A stretch of 64,000 nucleotides of DNA from Runella sp. CRIBMP. GTDB lineage: Bacteria > Bacteroidota > Bacteroidia > Cytophagales > Spirosomataceae. Of the stretch, positions 48,784 to 64,000 are shown one piece after another (the stretch's first letter is position 1; the number at the start of each line of letters is the position of its first letter). Where the stretch lies: assembly GCF_009905605.1 (NCBI RefSeq), contig NZ_JAAAKZ010000003.1, forward strand, positions 1 to 64,000, given 5' to 3'. The notes below the pieces were generated by a model that worked only from the letters and a program-made list of their open reading frames with translations, searched no databases and was not told where the DNA came from. A program made the translations under genes and the position numbers.

Positions 48784-50538
48784 TTAGAATGGAACGGTAA
48801 GAGTAGTACGAGTGGTACGTAGATTATTGATGCGGCGGCCTTGCTGAAACACCACCTCATCGCTGGCTTTATCGCTGTATTCGGGGTATTTGATGGCTAT
48901 CCATTGATTATTGACCGCTTCAACGGCTTCAAATTGAACAGCTAAAAGCGCTTTTTGTGAATTGGAAGCGGGTCGAGCTGACGTAACGCGGGCCCGCACC
49001 CGAGCTCCTGTTGACACCACCATTAAGCCATCTATTTGAATGGGTGACACCGCTCTCAGCCAAACGATTTGCCCTGCCACCGCGTCCGATGAAATTGTTT
49101 GGGTGAACTCTACCGCAAAAGGCTCATTTCTTACTTCGACCGTTGCCATTCGAACGGGTACTTTGTGCTCTGGCTCTTTGGGCTTTTCTTCTTTTTCAAC
49201 AGGCTTAGGCTCTTCCTTTACGGGGGGGGTATCTTCTGGTTTTTCGTCGACTGGTACCTTCTTTTTTACTGGGTTGGATGGGGTATTGTTAATGGGCTTT
49301 GAAGGTTTATCAATCGGAAGGGCTGATTCTTGTTTAGGTGGCAAACGCACTACCACTTCCGCTTGAGCAATTGTAGGAAGGCTGTTCTGTTTTTTTTCAA
49401 CCGCTGGGCCAACTACCTTTTTTGTTGTGTCTGTTTGAACCAGACCAAAGGGTGGTTCTTTACGGTCATCGTCTTTTTTATCTACGCCAACAAGCCAAAA
49501 CCCGACAATCCCCGCCGCAATCACGATAGCTCCCAACAATATCAACCCTTCCAAACTCAACAGATTAGCCGTGAGTTGTTGCGTTCCTGATTGCTTCTTA
49601 GGTTGCGTATCGGCACCCGCCAACCGAGTAGGTGCTACCTGTGGTTTATCAGTCTTAACATCTGCCAAACGAGTGGAGGGTAGGGGCTTGGGAGTCGTAT
49701 CAAATATTTGGAGGTTAATCGGCCCAGGTGCAACCACCAACGTCAAGGCCTGACGTAATTCTAAGGCTTTAGAAAAGCGTTTTTCTGGTTTCTTTTGAAG
49801 CAGTACCTCCAAAATTTCGTCTATCTGTTTGGGCAAATCGCCCACCCGTGTTCGTGCCGAAATGGGTTTTTTAGTCAGAATTTGGTTGATAAGGGTTGTA
49901 TCAGTGGCAGGTTCAAATGGCAGTTTTCCTGTCAATAGTTCGTACAATAACACCCCAACGGCGTACAAATCCGACTGTACTGACGGCTCCGCGCCATTCA
50001 ATAATTCAGGGGCCATGTATTCCAAGGTACCAACCACCCTATCTACCCGGGTGAGGCGCTGACTGCCAACCATTCGCGCAATGCCAAAATCCATCAGTTT
50101 AACCGTTCCTTCACGGGTGAGCATCAAATTTGCGGGTTTGATGTCTCGGTGCAAAATCCCTTTATAATGAGCGTGTTGCAACCCATCAAGGGCCTGAATA
50201 ACAATCCTGATGGCCGTTTCTAATGGCAATTTTCCTTGCTTAGACACCAAGCGCTCTAAAGTCATTCCGTCCACCAACTCCATCACCATCACATTGTCGG
50301 ACCGAACTTGAAGAAAATTGTATAAGGTCGCCACATTCGGATGGTTAAGTTGGGCAGAAAGCACAGCCTCATTCCGAAACCGTTCCATGAAAGTAGCGTC
50401 GCGCAACAAATGTGGATGCAGCATTTTGATGGCTACAGGACGACGAAGAAACGTATCGGTGGCACGATACACCGTCCCCATACCTCCTTCGCCGAGGAGC
50501 TCTTCAATATGATAGTTTTGTAGGGTTCGGCCAATCAT
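48784..50538 (-). CDS. membrane Ser/Thr protein kinase with periplasmic Pro/Lys/Glu-rich arm
   Basis: The 584-aa Hanks-type kinase has a full catalytic domain: [14 protein letters not shown] (Gly loop), AIKML (Lys), [12 protein letters not shown] near residue 131 and [10 protein letters not shown] as DFG. One membrane helix near residue 340 ([20 protein letters not shown]) is followed by a long linker rich in P, K and E ([20 protein letters not shown]), like the TonB periplasmic spacer, and a C-terminal beta domain of about 110 residues ([20 protein letters not shown] ... TTLTVPF). No PASTA or PEGA repeats are seen. It starts 26 bases after the phosphatase gene. I infer a sensor spanning the periplasm. 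Confidence 0.9.
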
Positions 50539-50564: not shown

Positions 50565-51413
50565 TTAGGCAATTTCTTCAGTTGGGCGGAGGGCTTGCTG
50601 TGCTTCAGAAGAGAGACGCTCAATCAACAACACGGTGATATTGTCGTGGCCACCGCGTTGTTTGGCGGCTTCTACCAACTGCTGCGCCGATTCATTCAAG
50701 GTGGGCATAAGCATCAGTTGCGCAATTTCATCATTGGTGAGATAGTCGTATAAACCATCGGTACATAGCAGCAGACGATCATCGCTTTCGAGGGAATGGG
50801 TCATGGGTTCGACATCAATTTCCACTTTGTTGTGGGTACCCATGGCACGAGTGAGTACGTTTCGTTCTGGATGTTTTTCGGCTTCTAGAGGAGCAATAAC
50901 CCCTTGCTGAACAAGCATTTGAACATACGTATGGTCAGTTGATAATTGTAAAAGTTGGCCGTTTTTGAGCAGATATAATCGGCTGTCACCTACATGGGCA
51001 ATGTACAATTTAGCATCGCACACCACCACCGCCGTGCAGGTTGTGCCCATGCCGCGCTGACGTACATTACGGCTTGCCGCCTGCCAAATGGCACGATTGG
51101 CTTTGGTAAATGCCAAAAACAAACTTTCTTCGGGTGTTTCTTCCCGTTGGTAATACGTTTTGGCAATGGTTTCCACTGCCATTTGAGAAGCGATTTCTCC
51201 CGCGGCGTGCCCTCCCATGCCATCTGCCACAATCGCCAGAAAACCTTTTGATGACCGTACCAACAAATCTGCTGGGCGCACAAACCGCGCCGCGTCTTCA
51301 TTGTTGGTACGCACACAACCTACATCCGATACCACCACGGCCCGTAAGTCGCTGAAAGATTCTGACAGGGAGGCGTCAGTTGCTTTATTTGATAACCATT
51401 TTTTCCAGAACAT
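50565..51413 (-). CDS. PP2C-type Ser/Thr phosphatase (Stp1/PrpC-like)
   Basis: The start is taken at ATG 51413 (MFWKKWLSNKATD), which lies 23 bases after the preceding kinase stop; a frame start at 51509 would overlap that gene. The 282-aa metal-dependent phosphatase has VSDVGCVRTNNEDAA, IVADGMGGHAAGEIASQ, HVGDSRLYLL, LLCTDGLYDYL and GGHDNITVLLI, supplying the Asp ligands of the binuclear centre. It is cytoplasmic and should reverse phosphorylation by the two kinases that flank it, as with PknB-Stp pairs. Confidence 0.95.
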   Translation of the reverse strand: MFWKKWLSNKATDASLSESFSDLRAVVVSDVGCVRTNNEDAARFVRPADLLVRSSKGFLAIVADGMGGHAAGEIASQMAVETIAKTYYQREETPEESLFLAFTKANRAIWQAASRNVRQRGMGTTCTAVVVCDAKLYIAHVGDSRLYLLKNGQLLQLSTDHTYVQMLVQQGVIAPLEAEKHPERNVLTRAMGTHNKVEIDVEPMTHSLESDDRLLLCTDGLYDYLTNDEIAQLMLMPTLNESAQQLVEAAKQRGGHDNITVLLIERLSSEAQQALRPTEEIA

Positions 51414-51436
51414 GGCACGTAGAGGTTCGGTGTAGG

Positions 51437-52321
51437 TCAATGATTTTTTGTTCTTAGCCAACGTTTTACAGGGATTTTTTCCATAAAATCTGTGAAAGTA
51501 TCCACCCATTCTGCAAGCGAAAATCCGTTGTCTGCTGGGCTTTTTAATTCTTGCAGCAGTTCCGTCGCCGTCATTCGATTGGTGCTATTGATTCGCAACA
51601 ACCTATGAATAAGACGCTTGCTTCTTTTTGTCAAGTGTGGAACCAATAAATCAGGGGAAGTGTACTCTCCTCGTTCTATTTTTAAGCGAACTTCCGTTTC
51701 GCTGCGACCGTCGAAAGGCAAATGCCCCGTCAGCATTTCGTAGAGTAAAACCCCTAACGACCAACAATCAGATTGAATGCTTACTTTGCCATGAAACTGC
51801 TCAGGAGCCATATAATGCGACGTTCCGACGATGTATCCTTCCTGCGTGAGTTTGGGCGTATAAGTCGATTTGGCAATTCCAAAATCCAACAATTTGGCAA
51901 AACTCTCACGGTTTACTTTTATGTTTCCCGGTTTCAAATCGCGGTGGATGATGTGTCGTTCGTGCAAATAAACTACCGCCAACACTATCTGCTCCATTAT
52001 CTTCCAGACAAACGCTTCGGGCAATCGCCCTTGTCGTTTGATGAGTTTTTCAAGCGTAATTCCTTCGACGTATTCCATGATAATGCAGGGCGTACCGTTT
52101 TCAATCGCGTATTCGTAAAGGGCCGCAATGTGAGGATGTTGCACAGAAGCCTGAATATAGGCCTCGTTACGAAATCGGGCGGCTTGGTCGGCACGATAGA
52201 GGACTTTCACCGCCGCAGGGCGGCGAGAGGTCTGGTGTTGTGCTTGATACACTTCGCCCATTCCTCCCGAGCCGAGCCATTGCGTTAAAACGTAGCCTTT
52301 TATGTTTTGGCCTAATTGCAT
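51437..52321 (-). CDS. soluble Ser/Thr protein kinase
   Basis: The 294-aa protein is a bare Hanks-type kinase domain: LGSGGMGEVYQAQHQ, AVKVLY with the catalytic Lys, HRDLKPGNIKVN near residue 127, LDFGIAKSTYT (DFG) and GTSHYMAPEQF. No membrane helix or sensor domain follows. It lies between the FHA-protease gene (91 bases upstream) and the phosphatase gene. It may phosphorylate the threonines recognised by the FHA domain next door (inference). The 91-base gap contains a weak inverted repeat TTCGAT/ATCGAA. Confidence 0.95.
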   Translation of the reverse strand: MQLGQNIKGYVLTQWLGSGGMGEVYQAQHQTSRRPAAVKVLYRADQAARFRNEAYIQASVQHPHIAALYEYAIENGTPCIIMEYVEGITLEKLIKRQGRLPEAFVWKIMEQIVLAVVYLHERHIIHRDLKPGNIKVNRESFAKLLDFGIAKSTYTPKLTQEGYIVGTSHYMAPEQFHGKVSIQSDCWSLGVLLYEMLTGHLPFDGRSETEVRLKIERGEYTSPDLLVPHLTKRSKRLIHRLLRINSTNRMTATELLQELKSPADNGFSLAEWVDTFTDFMEKIPVKRWLRTKNH

Positions 52322-52412: not shown

Positions 52413-54101
52413 TTATTCACTTTTAGGCGTTTTCAACAATTCCATTCCGTACTTGATGGGAATGGCGAATGAGATGATTCCCTGCCGGGCATCGCCCCCC
52501 CCCGCGTAATAAATCCCGATGACGTTTCCTTTTTCGTCAAACATCGGCCCACCGCTGTTGCCGCCGCCCGTGGCGTTCAAATCCAGTTGGTAGCTGTCGC
52601 CGAAACCCGATTGTTTGGTTGAAAATTCGGTGGAGCTTGCCACTACTTGCTGCACGTGGCCTGGCGAAGTAACGGGCGAAGCCACTTCAAATACCTCAGC
52701 ATTGGGTTTGAAAGGGTCATTTGACTTACGAACTACGCGCTGCTGCGGAGCACCACCGGGATAACCCATCACGATAATCTCTTCGCCCGCTTTTACCGAA
52801 CCGTAATTATCTTTGAGCGTCACGGGAGCTAGATTGTTGACATCCACCTTGATAAGCGCCACATCATGACTTTGTGAAGGCGTAATCAAACGGGCTTCAT
52901 ACGGCTGTGAGGTATTGGCAAAGACCACTTTTAAGTATTTGTTGCGGCCTTCCACTTGCGCTGGCCGACCATCCACCATGGTAGCTTCCGAAGGAACCCA
53001 GCCAAAAATTTGTTCAGCTCCTACGGTTGGCTCTTTGGCCAATACAGGCTGGCCCGTTTTATCAAGCCCCTGCACCAAATAACCCGGGAAGTTGTTCCAT
53101 GCAAAGCCCGAATAGCGCGTTTTCCAAGCAGCACCCACGTGGCGGTTGGTCAAAATCTGACCGTCGGAGCTTACTACAAATCCGCTGCCCGTTCCGGTAG
53201 AGCCCACGGGTAAGCCCACCAATGATTTTTTCTTGGTAACTAAATAAGGCTCGATGCCGTTTTGGGTCTGCACAAACAGCGGACGGAATGTACCTTGCGC
53301 ATCGGGGCGGTATTCATGGTACAACTCCTCGTTTTCTTGCACTTCGTACAGTTCCCACGAAATAAAAATCTTCACTACTTTATCGGTGTTGGCAGAAGCG
53401 ATAGCGGCAGTAGAAATTGGCTTGCCCCGCTCTACTTTTTCCTGCAATGCCACCATTTGGATTCGGGCTTCTTCTTGTTGTTTTTGGAGCGCCTGATTGT
53501 ATTTAGCATCCATCTCTGCTTGGTCTTCTCGGGTCGAATTCCAGAACACGAATCCTAAAGAGCCAAAAATCACAAAAGCAGCGGCCATAGCAGCCCAAAG
53601 CGTACGACGAGATTTGCTGCGTTCGGTGTTGATTACCCGTTCAAACGTCTGCTTGCCAATGCCCGTTTTGATGGGTGTTGATTCAGAAACTTCTAACGGT
53701 ACAAATTCATTGGTAGGTTTAACGACTTCTACCAATCGAGTGGCGGGCATTAATTCGGCGGGACGCGGGTCAATGTCAAAAATAAAAGCGGGGCCATTAT
53801 TTCCGAGTTGGATTTCGTCGCCTGGCTCGATGGAAGTTTGACCTTTTACGCGTGTTTTGTTGACAAAAATTCCGTTGCGGCTGTTGTTGTCAATCAACAC
53901 AAAAGCCAACGGGCCTTCTTTGACGATTTTGCCATGCTCACGGCTAACAACCGTATCAATTTCAGGATCGAACTGAATATCGCTGTCGTTTGAGCGGCCC
54001 AATGTAAGTTCATTGTGACCGTTAAAATCAAATTCTTCCACTTGATTTGCTTTGGCTCCCACAAGGTGACGAATGACGAATTGTTTGGCGGTAGCGTTCA
54101 T
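52413..54101 (-). CDS. FHA domain - TM - trypsin-like serine protease
   Basis: The 562-aa protein couples phosphothreonine recognition to envelope proteolysis. Residues about 25-110 are an FHA domain (LTLGRSNDSDIQF, VSREHGKIV, DNNSRNGIFVNKTRVKG). A membrane helix near residue 175 (LWAAMAAAFVIFGSLGFVFW) is followed by a coiled coil rich in E and Q. The periplasmic protease has His near 320 (TNRHVGAAW), Asp near 412 (HDVALIKVDV) and Ser near 515 (GGGNSGGPMFDEKG). No PDZ domain is present, unlike in DegP. It is the first gene of the five-gene kinase operon, driven by the special promoter at 54200-54296. Confidence 0.92.
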   Translation of the reverse strand: MNATAKQFVIRHLVGAKANQVEEFDFNGHNELTLGRSNDSDIQFDPEIDTVVSREHGKIVKEGPLAFVLIDNNSRNGIFVNKTRVKGQTSIEPGDEIQLGNNGPAFIFDIDPRPAELMPATRLVEVVKPTNEFVPLEVSESTPIKTGIGKQTFERVINTERSKSRRTLWAAMAAAFVIFGSLGFVFWNSTREDQAEMDAKYNQALQKQQEEARIQMVALQEKVERGKPISTAAIASANTDKVVKIFISWELYEVQENEELYHEYRPDAQGTFRPLFVQTQNGIEPYLVTKKKSLVGLPVGSTGTGSGFVVSSDGQILTNRHVGAAWKTRYSGFAWNNFPGYLVQGLDKTGQPVLAKEPTVGAEQIFGWVPSEATMVDGRPAQVEGRNKYLKVVFANTSQPYEARLITPSQSHDVALIKVDVNNLAPVTLKDNYGSVKAGEEIIVMGYPGGAPQQRVVRKSNDPFKPNAEVFEVASPVTSPGHVQQVVASSTEFSTKQSGFGDSYQLDLNATGGGNSGGPMFDEKGNVIGIYYAGGGDARQGIISFAIPIKYGMELLKTPKSE

Positions 54102-54199: not shown

Positions 54200-54296
54200 C
54201 AAAGTTCCTCCAAAAAGCCACGCTGGTAAATCCGGAAACACCTACATTTTGGGTAAGGGAAACCTGTATTTTGAAGTATAGGAAAACCTGTAGTTA
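54200..54296 (-). promoter_or_regulatory. regulon promoter A (FHA-protease/kinase operon)
   Basis: On the minus strand the -7 box GAACTTTG (54207-54200) is preceded by an 18-base spacer, then TTTAC (54230-54226) at the -33 position. Next comes a 24-base block (54226-54249) 23/24 identical to that of promoter B. Beyond it are two palindrome copies: a degenerate one at 54253-54268 and TATAGG-AAAA-CCTGTA at 54277-54292. The transcript would have a leader of about 90 bases. The element overlaps the ABC exporter stop. Confidence 0.75.
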
Positions 54297-56099
54297 GCCC
54301 AAAACCGTGGCGGCAAGCCGCCCGATATTGAGGGTACGGGCGTTTGAATCGATGATTTCGCGGTAAAGCCCCCCTGCCGCATACAGCGTTTCGTGGCTAC
54401 CTTTACCAATAATTTCACCTTCCTGCATTACATAAATTTGGTCAGCGTCCATGATTTGGCTGATACTGTGCGAGATAATCAATACGGTACGATTTTTCTT
54501 GATGGCATCGATGCTGTCTTTGATTTGCTCCGCCGTGATGGCATCCAAACTTGCGGTGGGTTCATCCAAGAAGATAATGGGGGGATTTTTGAGAAATAAA
54601 CGCGCAATAGCAATCCGCTGCTGCTGCCCACCCGACAGCGCTTTGGCTTCGGATTGATACCCATTGGGCATCTGTAAAATTTGTTCGTGCAGACTCGCTT
54701 GCTTAGCCGCCGATACGATTTCGTCTGGGGTAGCTTCCAATTTTCCGTAACGAATATTTTCTTCGATGGTACCCGAAAAAATATGGTTTTTCTGCATCAC
54801 CAAACCCACATTTCGACGAATCCAGTGCGGGTCGTATTCCGTCAAGGGTTTTCCATCAAGCAGAATTTCTCCATGCGTGGGGAAATAAAAGCCCGCCAAT
54901 AAATTCATGGCTGAACTTTTTCCTGCCCCCGACAAACCCACCAATGCCGTTGTTTTTCCTGCTTCCAAATGCAGATTTACCCCATTTAAGGCTTGCTTTC
55001 CGTTGGGATAAACAAAATCAACGGCTTTCATTTCGAAGGTTCCAGCAAAAGATTTATGCACAAGATTCCAATGGTTTTTCGTTTTGCTTTGACTGTTTTC
55101 GAGATAGGAGTTGTTCTCAATCATGTCAAAAAAGCCTTCGGCATAAGTGAGGGCTTCGCTGTATTCATCATAAATGCGGTGGAGGTGCCGCACGGGCGCC
55201 GAAACGTTGTTGAACAACATCAAGTGCAGCAAAATCGCCCCGATGGTCATTTGTTGGTTCAGGACAAAGTAGATGGTGACCACAAAAACCATGACCACGC
55301 CCAACTGCTCCGCAATGCTTTTGAGGCCATCAAAAAGATAATTGGTTCGGTGGTGTTTTACTTCGCTGTCTGAGAGTTGTTGGGTTAGTTTCCATTGGCG
55401 ACCCGTCTCGTATTCTTCTCTTACAAAAGACTTTACGACAAAAATAGACTCAATAAGGTTAAAAAGTGTGTTGGCTTTTTCTTCACGCAACTGTTGAATA
55501 TTGCGTCGAATCAGTTTTTGACGTTTGGATTGTTCCCGACTGATGAGCGCATAAAGTGGCATGATGAGGGTAGCACATACGCCCACCCAAATGTTTTTTT
55601 TGTACATCAGAGCCAAAGCCAACAACGCATTGGCAAACATGGGCACAATATCCACAAACAAATTTTTGACGGTTTTGGTCAGACTCTCGATGCCTTTGTC
55701 GATGCGTTTTTCAAGCTTTCCAATTTGGTTTTGCGAAAGCGCAAAAAAAGACAAATGATACGATACCATTCGCTTGATGCTGTAGTTGTGTAAATCGGCC
55801 GCTAACCGAAACCGCAGGCGGTCGCTCAAGAATTTTTGCCCCAATTGTACCAGCAAATTGATAATTTCTTTAGCAAACAAAACCAACACTAGCCCGCCCA
55901 CTATCCAAGCGATTTGTTCTTGGGTTTGGTTTTTTTTGTCAATAACTTCCTGAACGGTATTGACGGTATATTCCATCACCAAAGGGGTTACTTGGGCCAA
56001 TAAAGCGCCTACGCCCGTGAGAATAAAAGCACCGATTAAACTCTGACGATACTTTTGAACAAACGGCCAAAGCTTTTTTATAAGGGTGACGGTCGACAT
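54294..56099 (-). CDS. ABC exporter, fused permease-ATPase
   Basis: The start is ATG 56099 (MSTVTLIKKLWPFVQKYRQS); the longer frame to 56246 runs into the upstream gene and lacks support. The 601-aa half-transporter has six membrane helices in the first 330 residues and a nucleotide-binding domain with Walker A LVGLSGAGKSSAM, signature LSGGQQQRIAIA, Walker B IIFLDEPTASLD and the H-loop in IISHS. As a homodimer it should export a lipid, peptide or other hydrophobic compound (MsbA/BmrA-like). It lies 52 bases downstream of the two-TM gene in the same operon. Confidence 0.94.
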   Translation of the reverse strand: MSTVTLIKKLWPFVQKYRQSLIGAFILTGVGALLAQVTPLVMEYTVNTVQEVIDKKNQTQEQIAWIVGGLVLVLFAKEIINLLVQLGQKFLSDRLRFRLAADLHNYSIKRMVSYHLSFFALSQNQIGKLEKRIDKGIESLTKTVKNLFVDIVPMFANALLALALMYKKNIWVGVCATLIMPLYALISREQSKRQKLIRRNIQQLREEKANTLFNLIESIFVVKSFVREEYETGRQWKLTQQLSDSEVKHHRTNYLFDGLKSIAEQLGVVMVFVVTIYFVLNQQMTIGAILLHLMLFNNVSAPVRHLHRIYDEYSEALTYAEGFFDMIENNSYLENSQSKTKNHWNLVHKSFAGTFEMKAVDFVYPNGKQALNGVNLHLEAGKTTALVGLSGAGKSSAMNLLAGFYFPTHGEILLDGKPLTEYDPHWIRRNVGLVMQKNHIFSGTIEENIRYGKLEATPDEIVSAAKQASLHEQILQMPNGYQSEAKALSGGQQQRIAIARLFLKNPPIIFLDEPTASLDAITAEQIKDSIDAIKKNRTVLIISHSISQIMDADQIYVMQEGEIIGKGSHETLYAAGGLYREIIDSNARTLNIGRLAATVLG

Positions 56100-56151
56100 G
56101 AACTTTAGGGGTGAGAAGTGAGGAGATAGGACGAGCGGCCCCGTACTTATT

Positions 56152-57483
56152 TTACAATTTCTGCATAAACTCACGGGTGTTGAGCGTGGCGTCTGATTCG
56201 TAATCATAAAACAGTTCAACCATAGAAGACACAATGTGCGGGTCATCGGTGAGGAAAGCGGTCAATTTTGAAGGGCGGCCGCTGGAGTTGGAGCCACTCC
56301 CTAAAATACACACACACAAGGTTTTCTGAATACCAGGGGTGTTTTCACGGGGGGTGCTTATAAACAATTGAATGGGCAGTGTCTTGTTGACTTTGGTAAC
56401 GCGGACCCCCAAGTCCAGCATTTCGCGCATGGCCTGCGAATGTTGGTTGTAGAGTTGACGAATCAAAACTGACTGTGCATTCGTTTCGTCTTGTCCGTTC
56501 ATGGCAATCATAAAACGGTTGTGGTGGGGTACGGTTTCATTAACGGCCAGCGCCGAATTGCTACCACTTCGGTAGGTTTCGACCGACACATGTTCGTTGA
56601 ATATTTTGCCTAAATATTTTAGAAAAGCGTGGCTTGAACCTTCGTTTTGATCATTGAGTGTTACAAATTCAACGCGGGCACCGCTGCCGATTTTTTGCAG
56701 ATAAATAGCCGTTTCTTTGAGTTTATTTTCAACATCGGTACAATCTCGCAAGAGCGCTTCGGCGCGTCGGGCGTAGTCAAATTGGGTAGCATGGCGCAGT
56801 TCATGGGGTTTTAAATCAGCGTGTTTGGCCACCAAGTCCATCCGAAAAGGGGAAATCGCCTCAATTTTGGCCGTATTTGACAGCACCAATAGGCTATTTC
56901 CCTGCATTTTTGAAAGCTCTATTACCTTATCAATACCTTCCAACACATCTTTGGTACCTTCCATGAGCTGCACTTTCTCGTTGACCTTGCCGCTTACTTC
57001 CATCATGATGCCGTTCAGCGACTTGGTCGCCTGCACCAACAACCCGGTTTGGGTTTTAATGTGGTCCATTTCTTGTTGATTGAGGCGTTCTTTTTGCCGA
57101 TTTATTTTCTCAGTAGTAACCGTCAAAAACAACCCAATAAAAATCCCGACAATTCCACCCACCAAACCAGCGATGTCCAACTCACGAATATACTTATCAA
57201 TGCCGGGGCTGAAATAATTTTGCGGGTCAGTCCAATTACCGTTGACAGATTGAAAATCAGACAGGTAATGCATCGTATCGTAAAAAATATAATACCACTT
57301 TAAGCCCAAAGAAATGAGCAAGATGATGAAAGGAATTAGAAAGAAGAACGTAAAAAGCAGCGTGTGTTTTTTGGTAATGTCAAACAAAACCGCAAAAAAG
57401 CCCTCATCATGGGCATTGGTTGAATGAATTTGAGGCTTAGAATACTCTATTGGCGCAGCGTTGGATTCCATGAGTGAAAGCAT
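56152..57483 (-). CDS. unrecognised two-TM protein with large cytoplasmic domain
   Basis: I do not recognise the family. The start is ATG 57483 or 57471, since the regulated promoter's -7 box ends at 57508; frames reaching 57549 would start upstream of that promoter. The product is about 440 aa. It has an N-terminal cytoplasmic stretch, one helix (LLFTFFFLIPFIILLISLGL), a periplasmic loop of about 60 residues with QNYFSPGIDKYIRE, a second helix (GLVGGIVGIFIGLFLTVTT), a coiled coil (KINRQKERLNQQEMDHIKTQ), then an alpha/beta domain with GARVEFVTLND and HHNRFMIAMNG. The layout resembles a membrane sensor or adaptor. It is the first gene of the operon with the ABC exporter. Confidence 0.75.
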   Translation of the reverse strand: MLSLMESNAAPIEYSKPQIHSTNAHDEGFFAVLFDITKKHTLLFTFFFLIPFIILLISLGLKWYYIFYDTMHYLSDFQSVNGNWTDPQNYFSPGIDKYIRELDIAGLVGGIVGIFIGLFLTVTTEKINRQKERLNQQEMDHIKTQTGLLVQATKSLNGIMMEVSGKVNEKVQLMEGTKDVLEGIDKVIELSKMQGNSLLVLSNTAKIEAISPFRMDLVAKHADLKPHELRHATQFDYARRAEALLRDCTDVENKLKETAIYLQKIGSGARVEFVTLNDQNEGSSHAFLKYLGKIFNEHVSVETYRSGSNSALAVNETVPHHNRFMIAMNGQDETNAQSVLIRQLYNQHSQAMREMLDLGVRVTKVNKTLPIQLFISTPRENTPGIQKTLCVCILGSGSNSSGRPSKLTAFLTDDPHIVSSMVELFYDYESDATLNTREFMQKL

Positions 57484-57507
57484 TTTTATCGTTATGATTG
57501 AACGATA

Positions 57508-57603
57508 CAAAGTTCTTTCAAAACCCAATGCCCGTAAATCCGGAATCACCTACATTTAGAATACAGGAAAACATACATTTAGAACGTACAGGTTTTCCTA
57601 TAG
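57508..57603 (-). promoter_or_regulatory. regulon promoter B (two-TM protein/ABC exporter operon)
   Basis: On the minus strand the -7 box GAACTTTG (57515-57508), an 18-base spacer and TTTAC (57538-57534) match promoter A base for base in layout. The 24-base block at 57534-57557 is 23/24 identical to 54226-54249. Two palindromes follow: TACAGG-AAAA-CATACA (57562-57577) and TACAGG-TTTT-CCTATA (57587-57602), centred 25 bases apart. The distances from -7 to the palindromes (about 58 and 83) match promoter A (57 and 81). Confidence 0.75.
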
Positions 57604-59494: not shown

Positions 59495-59586
59495 CCCAAC
59501 TGAAATGCATGGTATCAACCTTTTGCATTTCTTTTTTCCTTCAGGAATCCCGCCGTCACAACTCAGCACTGAAACATCTATAATTA

Positions 59587-59623
59587 CCTACATTTTAGCT
59601 ATAGGAAAACCTATATATTTGGG
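59587..59623. promoter_or_regulatory. regulon element C (between MFS operon and histidine kinases)
   Basis: CCTACATTT (59587-59595) is followed 13 bases from its start by the perfect palindrome TATAGG-AAAA-CCTATA (59600-59615). Order and spacing match elements A and B. The -33 and -7 parts of A and B are absent. It lies 65 bases before the histidine kinase start and about 170 bases before the divergent MFS start, so it may control either. Confidence 0.7.
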
Positions 59624-59687: not shown

Positions 59688-61733
59688 ATGAAGAAATGTT
59701 TATTTTGCTTTTGCTGTCTTTGCTTTTCGGCTCACGCCCAAAAAACCGATTCCTTGCTACGGGTATCGGCAAAAACAGCGGTGGATACCCATAAAGTAAA
59801 CGTTTTGTACGACCTAGGACGGGCTTTTTGGCTTCAGGGAAACGATTCACTGGGAAAGATGTACTGTAATCAATCAGTGCTGCTAGCGCAAAAACTTCAT
59901 CATTTACGCGGCGAAGCCAAAGCAAGGTTACAATTAGTTCGAATTGAAAATGAATACCTTACCGACCTAAACACCGCTTACGCCCACCTCGACGCTACCT
60001 TAAAAATTGCAAAATCTCTTCCTGATAAATCATTGGAAGGACAAGTGTATTTTCGTCGGGCCCAACTGTATGAGAGTTTTTTTGAGAAACAACCACAGGT
60101 GAACCAACTGCTTAACCAGGCCTTACGATTATTTATTGAAACCAAAGATAAAGTCTGGCAAGGTACCGTATATGCCGAAATGGCTATTTTGCTCATCAGC
60201 GACGGTAAATACGCCGCTGCCATAGACTTGATGCTCAAGGCGCGCAGACTTCAGGAAGAAACCAATGACCTGATGGCCTTGCGCTCTACCATTCCCAATT
60301 TAGGGAGTTTTTACCGCGAAATGGGCCGCTACGAAAACGCCTTGGCCTGCTTCAAAGAAGCCGAAGTCATTGCCCAAAAACTTAATGACGAACGCCTACG
60401 AGCATACATTTTTAGCCAACGCGCCGAAATTTTTGAAAATCAGGGTAAATACAAAGAAGCATTGAATTCGTATCAACGCGCGGCCAAAATCCACGAGGTT
60501 TCGCATGCAACTCAGTGGTTGCCAAGAGCGTACGGACGAATTGGCGGGGCGTATTTTAAATTAAAAGAATACGAAAAAGCACTGCAATACACCCGTGCTG
60601 CCGACAGTTTATACAAAAGCCAAATAGACTCTAACGAATCCTTGGATCACCTTTCTCAAATCAATTTCGGCAAGATTTATTTGGTTTTTAAACAATACCA
60701 AAAAGTGATTTCGTACGCCCAAACTGGGTTGGAATGGGCGGCCGGTTCGGAGCCACCACTGCGCAAGGAAATGGCCGAATACCACCGTCAACTGGCCCAA
60801 GCCTATGAATCATTGGGCCAATCTCAAAAGGCGCTTTTTCATTTCAAAAACTATAAAGCCGAGTCAGACAGTATTCTCAACAACGAGGCGCTCCAGAAAA
60901 TTACCGTTTCTTCGATGACCTATGAATTTGAGAAACAACAACAAGCCACCAAACTTCGTATTCAAGCCCTTGAAAACACGCAACTTACCCAAACGCGCAA
61001 CATTCTTATTGGGCTTTCTCTTTTGGGAGTATTAGGGTTGGGGTTTGTGTTGTGGTCCAATCGTAGGTTAAAAACCAAAAATGAAGAACTCAAAACCAAA
61101 AATAGAGAAATTGAAGAAGCGCTTTTCAAAGGACAAAAAATTGAACGCAAACGAGTGGCTTCCGAACTTCACGACAATCTCAACACCAAACTTGCCGCCG
61201 TCAGATGGCATTTGGAAGCCATGCAAGCCGAAGACTTTAATCCTTTTAACCAAAAGATTCACAGTCGTTTGATTGATATGGCCAATGATGTTTATGCTGA
61301 TGTCCGGCTAATTTCGCACAATATGCTCCCAGCCGAACTAGAAACCCACGGACTGGTCTTTGCTTTACAAAAATTGGTGGAAAAACTGAACGTAAACACA
61401 AAAACCGAATTTCATTTTGTAGCCGATGCAGACCAAACGCGCCCTCCGTCGCAGGTAGAACATGAGCTTTATAACGTCGGACTGGAATTGGTCAATAACG
61501 TACTTAAACACGCCCACGCCACAGAAGTATGGATAAGTTTGAGCCAAACCGAAACCCAACTCTCGCTGACCGTCAGCGACAACGGCGTTGGAATGCACAC
61601 CGAAAGTCAATCAGACGGAATAGGAATGCAAAATTTACAAAACAGAGTGGATGTTTTAGCTGGAAAGCTAACGCTTGACAGTTCACCTGAAACTGGCACC
61701 AAAGTAAGCGTTGAAATACCTATTCAATTATGA
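59688..61733 (+). CDS. TPR-domain sensor histidine kinase (NarL/HisKA_3 type), paralogue 1
   Basis: The start is ATG 59688, giving a signal peptide (MKKCLFCFCCLCFSAHAQ); the frame is open to 59505 but that would place element C inside the gene. The 681-aa protein has five or more periplasmic TPR repeats (YENALACFKEAEVIAQ, YKEALNSYQRAAKIHE, YEKALQYTRAADSLYK), one membrane helix near residue 440 (ILIGLSLLGVLGLGFVLW), a coiled coil, then HisKA_3 with phospho-His near residue 495 (SELHDNLNTKLAAVRW) and HATPase_c (ELVNNVLKHAHA, VSDNGVGM, GIGMQNLQNRV). It should phosphorylate a LuxR-type regulator such as the one at 63544. It overlaps the next kinase by 4 bases. Confidence 0.93.
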   Translation: MKKCLFCFCCLCFSAHAQKTDSLLRVSAKTAVDTHKVNVLYDLGRAFWLQGNDSLGKMYCNQSVLLAQKLHHLRGEAKARLQLVRIENEYLTDLNTAYAHLDATLKIAKSLPDKSLEGQVYFRRAQLYESFFEKQPQVNQLLNQALRLFIETKDKVWQGTVYAEMAILLISDGKYAAAIDLMLKARRLQEETNDLMALRSTIPNLGSFYREMGRYENALACFKEAEVIAQKLNDERLRAYIFSQRAEIFENQGKYKEALNSYQRAAKIHEVSHATQWLPRAYGRIGGAYFKLKEYEKALQYTRAADSLYKSQIDSNESLDHLSQINFGKIYLVFKQYQKVISYAQTGLEWAAGSEPPLRKEMAEYHRQLAQAYESLGQSQKALFHFKNYKAESDSILNNEALQKITVSSMTYEFEKQQQATKLRIQALENTQLTQTRNILIGLSLLGVLGLGFVLWSNRRLKTKNEELKTKNREIEEALFKGQKIERKRVASELHDNLNTKLAAVRWHLEAMQAEDFNPFNQKIHSRLIDMANDVYADVRLISHNMLPAELETHGLVFALQKLVEKLNVNTKTEFHFVADADQTRPPSQVEHELYNVGLELVNNVLKHAHATEVWISLSQTETQLSLTVSDNGVGMHTESQSDGIGMQNLQNRVDVLAGKLTLDSSPETGTKVSVEIPIQL

Positions 61734-63547
61734 AAAAAATCGTATGCTTCCTTCTTCTTTTCCCCATTTCCTTGGGTTTTGTTCATGCCCAAAACCTACT
61801 GCTAGACAGTCTTATCCACCACATTAACGACTTATCCACAAAAAAGGTCTCTATCCAACGCGATACCAACATTATTTTGAGTTTGAGCTTACTGACCGAG
61901 CGCTCACTTAACATGGGCGATTCTCGTAATCAGTTTTTTTTGGATTCGTTACAACGTTTTACAAAAAAAACCAATTGGCCCAAAGGCTTAGGTTTACATG
62001 AACGGGCTTTGGGAAAACAAAACGACGTGAAGGGAAATTATACCGAGGCGCTCAAACATTACACCAACGCCATTCAACTCCTCAAAAAAGCAGGAGGGGA
62101 TTCGTTTGAACTGGCATACGCTTACGTATTGGCCGCTTTTGTTTTGAACAATAATGGATTGACAGACAAATGCCTTGAGATGCTGAATGAAGCCCTACCT
62201 TATGCCAAAGCCACTAAAAACAAAAACAATCTGTGCTGGATTTACGATTTTCTGGGCGACTATAATTACTATGATTCGTTTGGCATTAGGAATTATAAAA
62301 AAGCCCTGTTTTACTATAAAGAAGTAGAAAAAAACATTCCCTACACCACCAGCCCAACGCTAAAGGCCGATAATCCGCATTGTCTGGCCAATGTATACAT
62401 GAAACTCGGAGACGAAAAAAAAGCCAATGACTACCGCGACAACGCCTTACGCATTGCCAAACAGTACAACAACCGAGTAGTCATTTTTGCGACTTACGCC
62501 GATTTAGCCGACATTTATGAACAACGAAAATCGTACGAAAAAGCCCTCGAATACCGCAAAGCTAGTCTTGAATACGCCCAAAAATCAGGTTGGAAAGAAA
62601 TGGAATCGCGGGCCGAAAATTACATTTATCAAACTTACAAGCACATAGGCGACTATAAAAATGCCCTCAAATACTACGAACTTCATAAAACACACGAAGA
62701 CAGTTTAGGCCGATTTTCGGTCCAGAAAGCCTACGCCGAACTTCAAACTAAATACGAAGCCGAAAAACAGCGATTGCGTATCACCGATTTAGAAAAAGAG
62801 CAGTTAATTCAAACCCGAAATTTTCTAATCGGGCTTTCTGTCTTAGGTGTATTGTTGACTTGTTTTATTTTCTGGTCAAACCGTAAGCTAAAGGCAAAGA
62901 ATCAACAACTAAAAACCAAAAACCGAGAAATAGAAGAAGCACTTTTGAAAGGGCAAACAATTGAGAGAAAGAGAGTTGCATCAGAACTTCACGACAATCT
63001 AAACACAAAAATAGCCGCATTACGCTGGCGTTTGGAAGCCCTTGATACCTCAAAATATCCAGAAGCTGACCAAAAAATTCACGCGGGCCTTCTCCAAACC
63101 CTCGAAGATGTATATGCCGATGTACGTCTTATTTCACATAATTTGCTTCCGACCGAACTCGAAACACAGGGGTTGGTCGCAGCATTGCAAAAATTGACCG
63201 AAAAACTCAACGGCAATGCTAAGACTGTTTTTCATTTAGTCGCCAACGGAATAACCGAACGCCTTAATCCCAAAATTGAATATCAATTGTACAGCGTTGC
63301 CCTAGAATTGGTCAACAACGTCCTTAAACACGCCCAAGCACAACAAGTTTGGATAAGTATTTCACAAAACGATGAAATAATCAGCCTGACCGTCAGCGAC
63401 GATGGCAGAGGCATGTCAAACATTGAAAAAGCCACGGGCGTTGGCCTACGCAACATCAGCGCCCGCGTAGAAGCGTTGAACGGAACTTGGCTGATTGACA
63501 GTAAGCCAACAACGGGCACCAAAGTTAAGGTTGAAGTGCCCGTTTAA
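61730..63547 (+). CDS. TPR-domain sensor histidine kinase, paralogue 2
   Basis: The 605-aa kinase starts inside the stop of its paralogue (ATGA), so the two are coupled. A signal peptide (MKKIVCFLLLFPISLGFVHA) is followed by TPR repeats (YTEALKHYTNAIQLLK, YEKALEYRKASLEYAQ, YKNALKYYELHKTHED), a membrane helix (FLIGLSVLGVLLTCFIFW), a coiled coil, and HisKA_3/HATPase with phospho-His near residue 421 (SELHDNLNTKIAALRW), ELVNNVLKHAQA and VSDDGRGM. The transmitter halves of the two paralogues are far more alike than their sensor halves, which suggests duplication followed by sensor divergence. The 3' end overlaps the convergent response regulator by 4 bases. Confidence 0.93.
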   Translation: MKKIVCFLLLFPISLGFVHAQNLLLDSLIHHINDLSTKKVSIQRDTNIILSLSLLTERSLNMGDSRNQFFLDSLQRFTKKTNWPKGLGLHERALGKQNDVKGNYTEALKHYTNAIQLLKKAGGDSFELAYAYVLAAFVLNNNGLTDKCLEMLNEALPYAKATKNKNNLCWIYDFLGDYNYYDSFGIRNYKKALFYYKEVEKNIPYTTSPTLKADNPHCLANVYMKLGDEKKANDYRDNALRIAKQYNNRVVIFATYADLADIYEQRKSYEKALEYRKASLEYAQKSGWKEMESRAENYIYQTYKHIGDYKNALKYYELHKTHEDSLGRFSVQKAYAELQTKYEAEKQRLRITDLEKEQLIQTRNFLIGLSVLGVLLTCFIFWSNRKLKAKNQQLKTKNREIEEALLKGQTIERKRVASELHDNLNTKIAALRWRLEALDTSKYPEADQKIHAGLLQTLEDVYADVRLISHNLLPTELETQGLVAALQKLTEKLNGNAKTVFHLVANGITERLNPKIEYQLYSVALELVNNVLKHAQAQQVWISISQNDEIISLTVSDDGRGMSNIEKATGVGLRNISARVEALNGTWLIDSKPTTGTKVKVEVPV

Positions 63548-64000
63548 ACCAATTTATGCCTGACGGCGTACTTAATGATTCCGATGGAATTTTTTACGCC
63601 CAATTTGCGAAGAATATTATGGCGGTGGGTTTCAACCGTGCCTACACTGATAAAAAGATGCTCGGCGATTTCGGAGGTGGAAAGTTCTTGCGCAATAAGC
63701 CGAATGATTTCTAATTCGCGCGCCGTAACCGCAATTGGCTCGCCAGGTACTTCGTTCGAAGGGGTAGAAGCCACCGCCGCTGGGCTCAACAACTCTTTCA
63801 TGACGGCTTCGCTAAAGTACTTTTCGCCGCGAGCAACGGTCGTCAGCGCTTTTTCCAACTCTGCCCGATTGGCCTTTTTCATGACATAGCCCGAAATACC
63901 CGCCTGAAATGCCTGACGGATGTTATCGGCGTCTTCCGATACGGTTAACATCAAAATTTTTAAATCGGGAAATTTATCCCGGACCTGTAACGTAAGCGCC
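63544..64000 (-). CDS. NarL/LuxR-family response regulator, N-terminus beyond the window
   Basis: The frame stays open through position 63999 on the minus strand, so the gene is cut by the right edge; the ATG at 63954 is internal. Visible are the C-terminal half of the receiver domain (LKILMLTVSEDADNIRQAF and the conserved Lys in GYVMKKANRAELEKAL) and the LuxR helix-turn-helix (VTARELEIIRLIAQEL, TSEIAEHLFISVGTVETHRH, NILRKLGVKN). The phospho-Asp lies outside the window. Convergent overlap with the TPR kinases suggests that they are its partners. It is the best in-window candidate to bind elements A, B and C. Confidence 0.92.
   Translation of the reverse strand, partial: ALTLQVRDKFPDLKILMLTVSEDADNIRQAFQAGISGYVMKKANRAELEKALTTVARGEKYFSEAVMKELLSPAAVASTPSNEVPGEPIAVTARELEIIRLIAQELSTSEIAEHLFISVGTVETHRHNILRKLGVKNSIGIIKYAVRHKLV

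What the first reader, a model, noticed from the sequence alone, without database searches (positions are those of the whole stretch)
54200..57603. Two operons share an almost identical multi-part promoter (A and B)
Upstream of the FHA-protease/kinase operon and of the two-TM/ABC operon I find the same ordered parts on the minus strand: -7 GAACTTTG, exactly 18 bases, TTTAC, a 24-base block identical at 23 of 24 positions (54226-54249 and 57534-57557), then two TATAGG-N4-CCTATA-like palindromes centred 24-25 bases apart. The -7 box has G in place of T, a weak form that would suit an activator bound upstream of -33. Conservation with fixed spacing between non-homologous genes argues for a dedicated regulator. 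The operon functions (phosphosignalling, proteolysis, export) make an envelope-sensing regulon plausible.
Basis: partly seen in the sequence, partly recalled or inferred. Interest (0 to 1): 0.82.

Follow-up and report, generated by a model that had tools for sequence, protein, structure and literature searches.

The report
Two-component regulon with conserved tandem operators
Two neighbouring operons in a Runella bacterium share one conserved activator-type promoter, which is inherited together with a particular sensor and regulator pair that probably switches them on.

Summary
The architecture recurs across the family; ATGTAGG to CTTTG spans 48 nt in the aligned sites and in 14 of 22 sites not used for the model. 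In 121 family genomes the element (E<=1e-5) is in 24; all 24 carry a >=59% identical copy of the NarL-type response regulator at 63544-64191; 2 of the other 97 do, both with weaker elements. In Larkinella and others the two operons are on different contigs and both have elements, though the FHA sites there are altered. Best explanation: the regulator, phosphorylated by TPR kinases, binds tandem TATAGG-type half-sites and activates a Bacteroidota sigma-A-like promoter, co-expressing a Ser/Thr kinase/phosphatase/FHA-protease operon with a two-TM/ABC-exporter operon. Not a dispersed repeat. Binding, sign and signal are inferred. A new regulon of a known kind.

The parts
54200..54207 (-). -7 box GAACTTTG of promoter A (FHA-protease operon)
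   Evidence: AACTTTGT mostly invariant in 20 aligned sites
54226..54249 (-). 24-nt conserved block of promoter A (AAATGTAGGTGTTTCCGGATTTAC): ATGTAGG half-site plus GGATT/TTTAC at the -33 position
54253..54268 (-). proximal, imperfect palindrome of operator A (TACAGG-TTTC-CCTTAC)
   Evidence: own count
54277..54292 (-). distal, perfect palindrome of operator A (TACAGG-TTTT-CCTATA); one base beyond the ABC stop codon
57508..57515 (-). -7 box GAACTTTG of promoter B (two-TM/ABC operon)
57534..57557 (-). 24-nt conserved block of promoter B
57562..57577 (-). proximal, imperfect palindrome of operator B (TGTATG-TTTT-CCTGTA)
   Evidence: own count
57587..57602 (-). distal, perfect palindrome of operator B (TATAGG-AAAA-CCTGTA)
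59587..59615 (-). third operator, not in the finding: perfect palindrome TATAGG-TTTT-CCTATA (59600-59615) plus ATGTAGG half-site (59587-59593); no CTTTG box at the 48-nt distance; between MFS gene (-) and TPR histidine kinase (+)
52413..54101 (-). FHA domain + trypsin-like protease, first gene of operon A
   Evidence: Pfam FHA 2e-16, Trypsin_2 5.1e-21
51437..52321 (-). Ser/Thr protein kinase, operon A
   Evidence: Pfam Pkinase 7.7e-58
50565..51509 (-). PP2C phosphatase, operon A
   Evidence: Pfam PP2C_2; NCBIfam Stp1/IreP 259.8 bits, cut-off 230
48784..50538 (-). second Ser/Thr protein kinase, operon A
   Evidence: Pfam Pkinase 3.8e-58
56152..57483 (-). two-TM protein, first gene of operon B; no family above a curated cut-off (start 57483 or 57471)
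   Evidence: alignment A2
54294..56099 (-). ABC exporter (membrane + ATPase), operon B
   Evidence: Pfam ABC_membrane, ABC_tran
59688..61733 (+). TPR sensor histidine kinase HK1 (likely start; the ORF opens at 59505)
   Evidence: TPR_12, HisKA_3, HATPase_c
61730..63547 (+). TPR sensor histidine kinase HK2
63544..64000 (-). NarL-type response regulator (continues to contig position 64191), the proposed regulator
   Evidence: Response_reg + GerE; full length 215 aa

Best explanation
A and B are two operator-promoters of one small regulon. The TPR histidine kinases (59688-63547) phosphorylate the NarL-type response regulator (63544-64191). The regulator binds TATAGG/TGTAGG half-sites laid out as inverted pairs (TATAGG-N4-CCTRTA, then N5-6, then ATGTAGG), about 47-98 bp upstream of the expected start, and activates a primary-sigma-type promoter (poor -33 GGATT/TTTAC, -7 AACTTTG). 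This co-expresses the FHA-protease/Ser-Thr kinase/PP2C/kinase operon with the two-TM/ABC-exporter operon. The third site probably lets the system control its own kinase. Shown by sequence: the elements, spacing, conservation, rarity in the genome, co-inheritance with the regulator. Inferred: binding, phosphorelay partners, activation, sigma factor, start sites.
For: Own genome: only A and B carry the block; model R1 finds A, B and the HK site at E 8e-18, 1.6e-15, 2e-9, next hit 0.135. Conservation is limited to boxes: 1.92 bits per column in ATGTAGG, 1.82 in AACTTTGT, 0.51 in the spacer, 20 sites. The regular expression allowed 43-58 nt and the retained sites all gave 48; of 22 sites not used for R1, 14 have a half-site-like word at exactly 48. 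Model-free pattern: 16 of 121 genomes, all 16 among the 26 regulator-positive (10 of 26 missed), backward control 0 of 121. Runella G095 and G111 lack both. 23 of 32 elements with E<=1e-10 lie within 13 kb of a regulator copy or paralogue, about 1% expected. Two-TM gene: 20 of 20 genomes have the element upstream, in G011 before a small gene that precedes it; FHA gene: 20 of 24 at E<=1e-3. Two Gemmatimonadaceae MAGs with two-TM+ABC have no element at E<=1 in their loci and no regulator at E<=1e-55.
Against: No binding, transcription or mutant data. 8 of 22 sites not used for R1 lack a half-site-like word at 48 nt, among them the Larkinella FHA sites, which are about 25 nt longer, and the ELWxxDGT sites; three Larkinella FHA sites reach only E 0.02-0.07 genome-wide. 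In three Emticicia-type genomes and G034 the FHA gene has no element of its own; in the former it follows the ABC gene. In 2 of 3 Spirosoma genomes the regulator stands without element or kinase in the fetched 16-17 kb. The third own site lacks the -7 box, and TATATTTG abuts it in the kinase direction, so repression there is possible. Co-inheritance cannot by itself tell regulator from fellow target.
Confidence: 0.7

Rival explanations
1. The same regulator binds these sites but represses the operons until the signal arrives.
For: The palindrome of site 3 abuts a TATATTTG sequence in front of the kinase.
Against: At A, B and the aligned relatives the half-sites lie upstream of the -33 region at one distance from a promoter with poor -33 and non-consensus first -7 base, a layout that suits activation.
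Confidence: 0.14
2. Another, unlinked transcription factor binds the element, and the kinase/regulator pair is only a further target or neighbour.
For: 9 of the 32 strongest elements have no regulator copy within 13 kb.
Against: Presence of the element follows presence of this regulator; paralogous kinase/regulator pairs (45-55% identity) have element-like sites in the same divergent place with other genes behind them.
Confidence: 0.13
3. The element is a promoter for an alternative sigma factor (GGATT and AACTTTGT as its two boxes) and the palindromes are secondary.
For: GGATT is conserved at the -33 position in many sites (1.39 bits per column).
Against: The -7 box keeps the CTTTG core of the primary-sigma box; GGATT varies in Dyadobacter, Arundinibacter, Emticicia and Spirosoma; the palindrome half-sites are more conserved (1.67 and 1.53 bits).
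Confidence: 0.07
4. A and B are a recent duplication or a dispersed repeat without regulatory role.
For: The operons are adjacent and the blocks nearly identical.
Against: Two copies in the genome; diverged spacer; conserved at orthologous places in Runella, Dyadobacter, Larkinella, Emticicia, Spirosoma.
Confidence: 0.02

Closest known systems
FimS/FimR of Porphyromonas gingivalis (TPR sensor kinase with response regulator)
   Same: HK1 matches the NCBIfam FimS model at E 9.8e-20, best stretch in the TPR part; FimR binds the mfa1 promoter as activator (passages of PMC1974823).
   Different: 70.3 bits against a curated cut-off of 600; other targets (fimbriae); 'binding site' and 'footprint' occur 0 times in that paper, so no motif to compare. 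That FimR is NarL-type is recalled.
NarL/FixJ (LuxR/GerE-type) response regulators and their paired half-site operators
   Same: Regulator has Response_reg + GerE domains; paired inverted half-sites. TATAGGTNNTT resembles the GerE consensus RWWTRGGYNNYY, which is recalled; searches found no held paper with it.
   Different: Three or more half-sites with a 24-25 bp palindrome period; not matched to any named motif here.
Bacteroidota primary-sigma promoter (TAnnTTTG -7 box)
   Same: CTTTG core; PMC9723704 (passages) gives TAnnTTTG for the sigma-A -7 box of Flavobacterium psychrophilum.
   Different: G for T at the first base, and GGATT/TTTAC in place of TTTG at -33 (that consensus is recalled).

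Membership tests
NarL-type two-component regulon | Response regulator with receiver and GerE-type HTH | tested here: met
   Response_reg 30.6 bits (cut-off 30.2, on the part inside the window) and GerE 60.7 bits (cut-off 23.5)
NarL-type two-component regulon | Kinase of HisKA_3 type encoded beside it | tested here: met
   HK1 and HK2: HisKA_3 and HATPase_c above cut-offs; genes convergent with the regulator
NarL-type two-component regulon | Several promoters share a conserved operator at one position | tested here: met
   A, B and relatives; 14 of 22 further sites keep the 48-nt distance
NarL-type two-component regulon | Regulator binds the operator, phosphorylation-dependent | not testable with these tools
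   needs gel shift or footprinting
FimS/FimR system | Kinase is a FimS equivalog | tested here: not met
   70.3 bits against cut-off 600
Bacteroidota primary-sigma promoter | -7 box TAnnTTTG | tested here: inconclusive
   GAACTTTG: TTTG kept, first T replaced by G
Dispersed repeat | Many copies at random genome places | tested here: not met
   2 copies in 7.13 Mb at up to 3 mismatches

The most novel reading that the evidence does not exclude
This is a co-inherited signalling island in which a His-Asp two-component system transcriptionally commands a complete Ser/Thr-phosphorylation circuit (two kinases, PP2C phosphatase, FHA-protease reader) together with its own two-TM/ABC exporter, through a multi-half-site operator that has duplicated and diversified with paralogous kinase/regulator pairs that control other surface proteins in the same bacterial family.
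Probability: 0.48. Interest if true: 0.62.

Novelty: new member of a known kind. Interest (0 to 1): 0.5.

Why it matters
Bacteroidota have many NarL-type regulators and few known operators for them (recalled; the first look had 95 loose candidates in this genome). Here one such regulator gets a predicted operator, a promoter geometry and a short target list that can be tested directly. It would link His-Asp signalling to a Ser/Thr kinase/phosphatase/FHA circuit and an uncharacterised exporter. Three narrow searches of the held open-access library listed no paper on such a regulon; that is weak evidence of absence.

Tried and rejected
Dispersed repeat: rejected. Recent duplication: rejected. 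Outside the family: 194 order-level genomes gave only 3 Runella, own genome included, at E<=0.001, with stricter filters that lose weak matches. Structure of the two-TM protein: mean pLDDT 43.8, pTM 0.26, too poor, so no fold search was made. A first gapped pattern found nothing because I misplaced its letters. R1 on loci of +-1.5 kb around the regulators found nothing; the element lies further away and larger stretches were fetched. Whether the kinase promoter is activated or repressed was looked at in 20 relatives without a clear spacing. PADLOC hits are to kinase, ATPase and protease models; defence was not pursued. The upstream print shows the wrong side for minus-strand loci; counts rest instead. 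Three weak own-genome and many weak family matches (E>0.05) were not entered.

Full report
What was checked. The two regions read as the finder wrote. The 24-base block is 23/24 identical, the 18-base spacing to GAACTTTG is exact in both, palindrome centres are 24 and 25 bases apart. The 18-nt spacer is only 10 of 18 identical. In the held own genome (7,129,087 bases, 55 contigs) the block is found twice with up to 3 mismatches and its backward control never. The perfect palindrome TAYAGG-N4-CCTRTA is at three places, 54277, 57587 and 59600; the backward control gives 2 on each strand, so it is the clustering in 5.4 kb, not the count, that is telling.

Where it is. The closest named relative found is Runella aurantiaca (98% identity of the two-TM protein). 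Twenty loci encoding a relative of that protein came from the genome collection: Runella 5, Larkinella 6, Spirosoma 3, Emticicia 2, Dyadobacter 1, Arundinibacter 1 and two MAGs labelled Gemmatimonadaceae. The element stands upstream in the first 18, in Arundinibacter before a small gene that precedes two-TM; the two MAG loci have no match to the model at E<=1.

Spacing. The regular expression allowed 43-58 nt between ATGTAGG-like and TTTG words; every match kept had 48. Six matches were dropped as unrelated: WIN 32471 (47 nt), L004 134, L006 1656 and L008 11193 (54), L004 9388 and L005 9387 (48). Three more Spirosoma sites were added by eye at the same spacing. Of 22 sites not used for the model, 14 have a half-site-like word, loosely defined, at exactly 48 nt; 8 do not, among them the FHA sites of Larkinella (L070, L073, L074) and of G033 (L103), and two ELWxxDGT sites (L071, L077). 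So the spacing is fixed in the core set and relaxed or rebuilt in some targets.

Regulon model. A sequence-only model R1 was built from 20 sites. In the own genome it gives A, B and 59556-59616, then E 0.135. In 121 family genomes 63 have a match at E<=0.1, many of them weak; 24 have E<=1e-5.

Candidate regulator. Neighbourhoods of 20 places from the match list were fetched, then 20 more and 10 more. One search was aimed at places where a kinase had been seen or was likely; 18 of its 20 stretches hold a TPR kinase and a convergent regulator (not L095, L102). Beside the element lie FHA-protease operons, two-TM/ABC, ELWxxDGT-type proteins (name recalled) and small 141-146 aa membrane proteins (DUF3592 in two of four scanned). 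The unbiased figure is distance: of 32 elements with E<=1e-10, 23 lie within 13 kb of a regulator copy or paralogue of at least 40% identity; of 18 with E 1e-10 to 1e-5, 13; of 11 to 1e-3, 5; of 31 to 0.05, 9; about 1% expected. Sites without such a neighbour include L065, L067, L068, L069, L075, L078, L079, L082 and L084, some on short contigs.

Co-occurrence. Searching the same 121 genomes with the regulator at E<=1e-50 and tabulating: element E<=1e-5 and regulator >=59% identity: 24 both, 0 element only, 2 regulator only (their elements have E 4e-4 and 7e-4), 95 neither. The 59% limit was chosen after seeing the data; at 65% the table is 23, 1, 1, 96. At element E<=1e-3 and 59% it is 26, 1, 0, 94. 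A model-free pattern matched 16 of 121 genomes, all regulator-positive, with no backward-control match, and missed 10 of the 26. The two-TM gene is in 20 of 121 genomes, all 20 with element and regulator. The FHA gene is in 24 of 121 at E<=1e-60; 20 have an element upstream; the exceptions are three Emticicia-type genomes, where FHA follows ABC, and G034, whose nearby regulator is only 49% identical. Of 15 genomes behind two-TM loci, 13 carry the regulator at 66-81% identity and the two MAGs have no hit at E<=1e-55. In S. profusum the kinase-element-FHA arrangement was then found beside the regulator (element 15.4 bits); in the other two Spirosoma the regulator had neither element nor kinase in the fetched stretch. 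These figures are not corrected for shared ancestry; Runella G095 and G111 lack both element and a >=59% regulator, which argues against mere kinship.

Unlinked targets. In six Larkinella-type genomes of the draw (G016, G071, G082, G091, G100, G116), in G024 and in S. profusum the FHA operon and the two-TM/ABC operon are on different contigs, and both have an element match. The FHA matches in the Larkinella type are weaker (genome-wide E from 8e-7 to 0.07) and longer. This still suggests that the element, not just the cluster, is selected.

Mechanism. The half-sites, their inverted pairing and their place upstream of an imperfect primary-sigma-like promoter fit activation by a NarL-type regulator. 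The -7 consensus TAnnTTTG is from passages of PMC9723704. FimS/FimR (passages of PMC1974823) is the nearest characterised Bacteroidota system I found; HK1 fits its kinase model far below the cut-off, so membership is not claimed. The signal is unknown. 'Envelope sensing' is a fair guess from a Ser/Thr phosphosignalling set and an MsbA-like exporter (317.7 bits, cut-off 602), but untested. After re-checking I lowered the main confidence from 0.72 to 0.70 because of the relaxed spacing in 8 of 22 sites.

Noticed in passing
59587-59615: Third operator in front of the TPR kinase; TATATTTG abuts the palindrome in the kinase direction and no CTTTG box lies at the 48-nt distance towards the MFS gene.
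   Followed up: partly
L088, L092, L128, L131: TPR-kinase/regulator pairs whose regulator is 53-55% identical have element-like sites in front of ELWxxDGT-type proteins, so operator and regulator may have diversified together.
   Followed up: partly
L020, L021: Two MAGs labelled Gemmatimonadaceae carry the two-TM/ABC pair at 63-70% identity without the element; horizontal transfer or a binning error.
   Followed up: partly
L098, L099: Two Runella genomes have three TPR kinases in a row before the single regulator, suggesting several inputs to one output.
   Followed up: no
G063:C1:4978392, G103:C2:655030, G086:C1:754749: Three Runella genomes have an unlinked match to only the promoter-proximal part of the model (positions 31-74); genes not examined.
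   Followed up: no
L067, L068, L069, L083, L084: Small 141-146 aa membrane proteins (DUF3592 in two of four scanned) are the first genes behind elements; in L083 one precedes two-TM/ABC in the same direction.
   Followed up: partly
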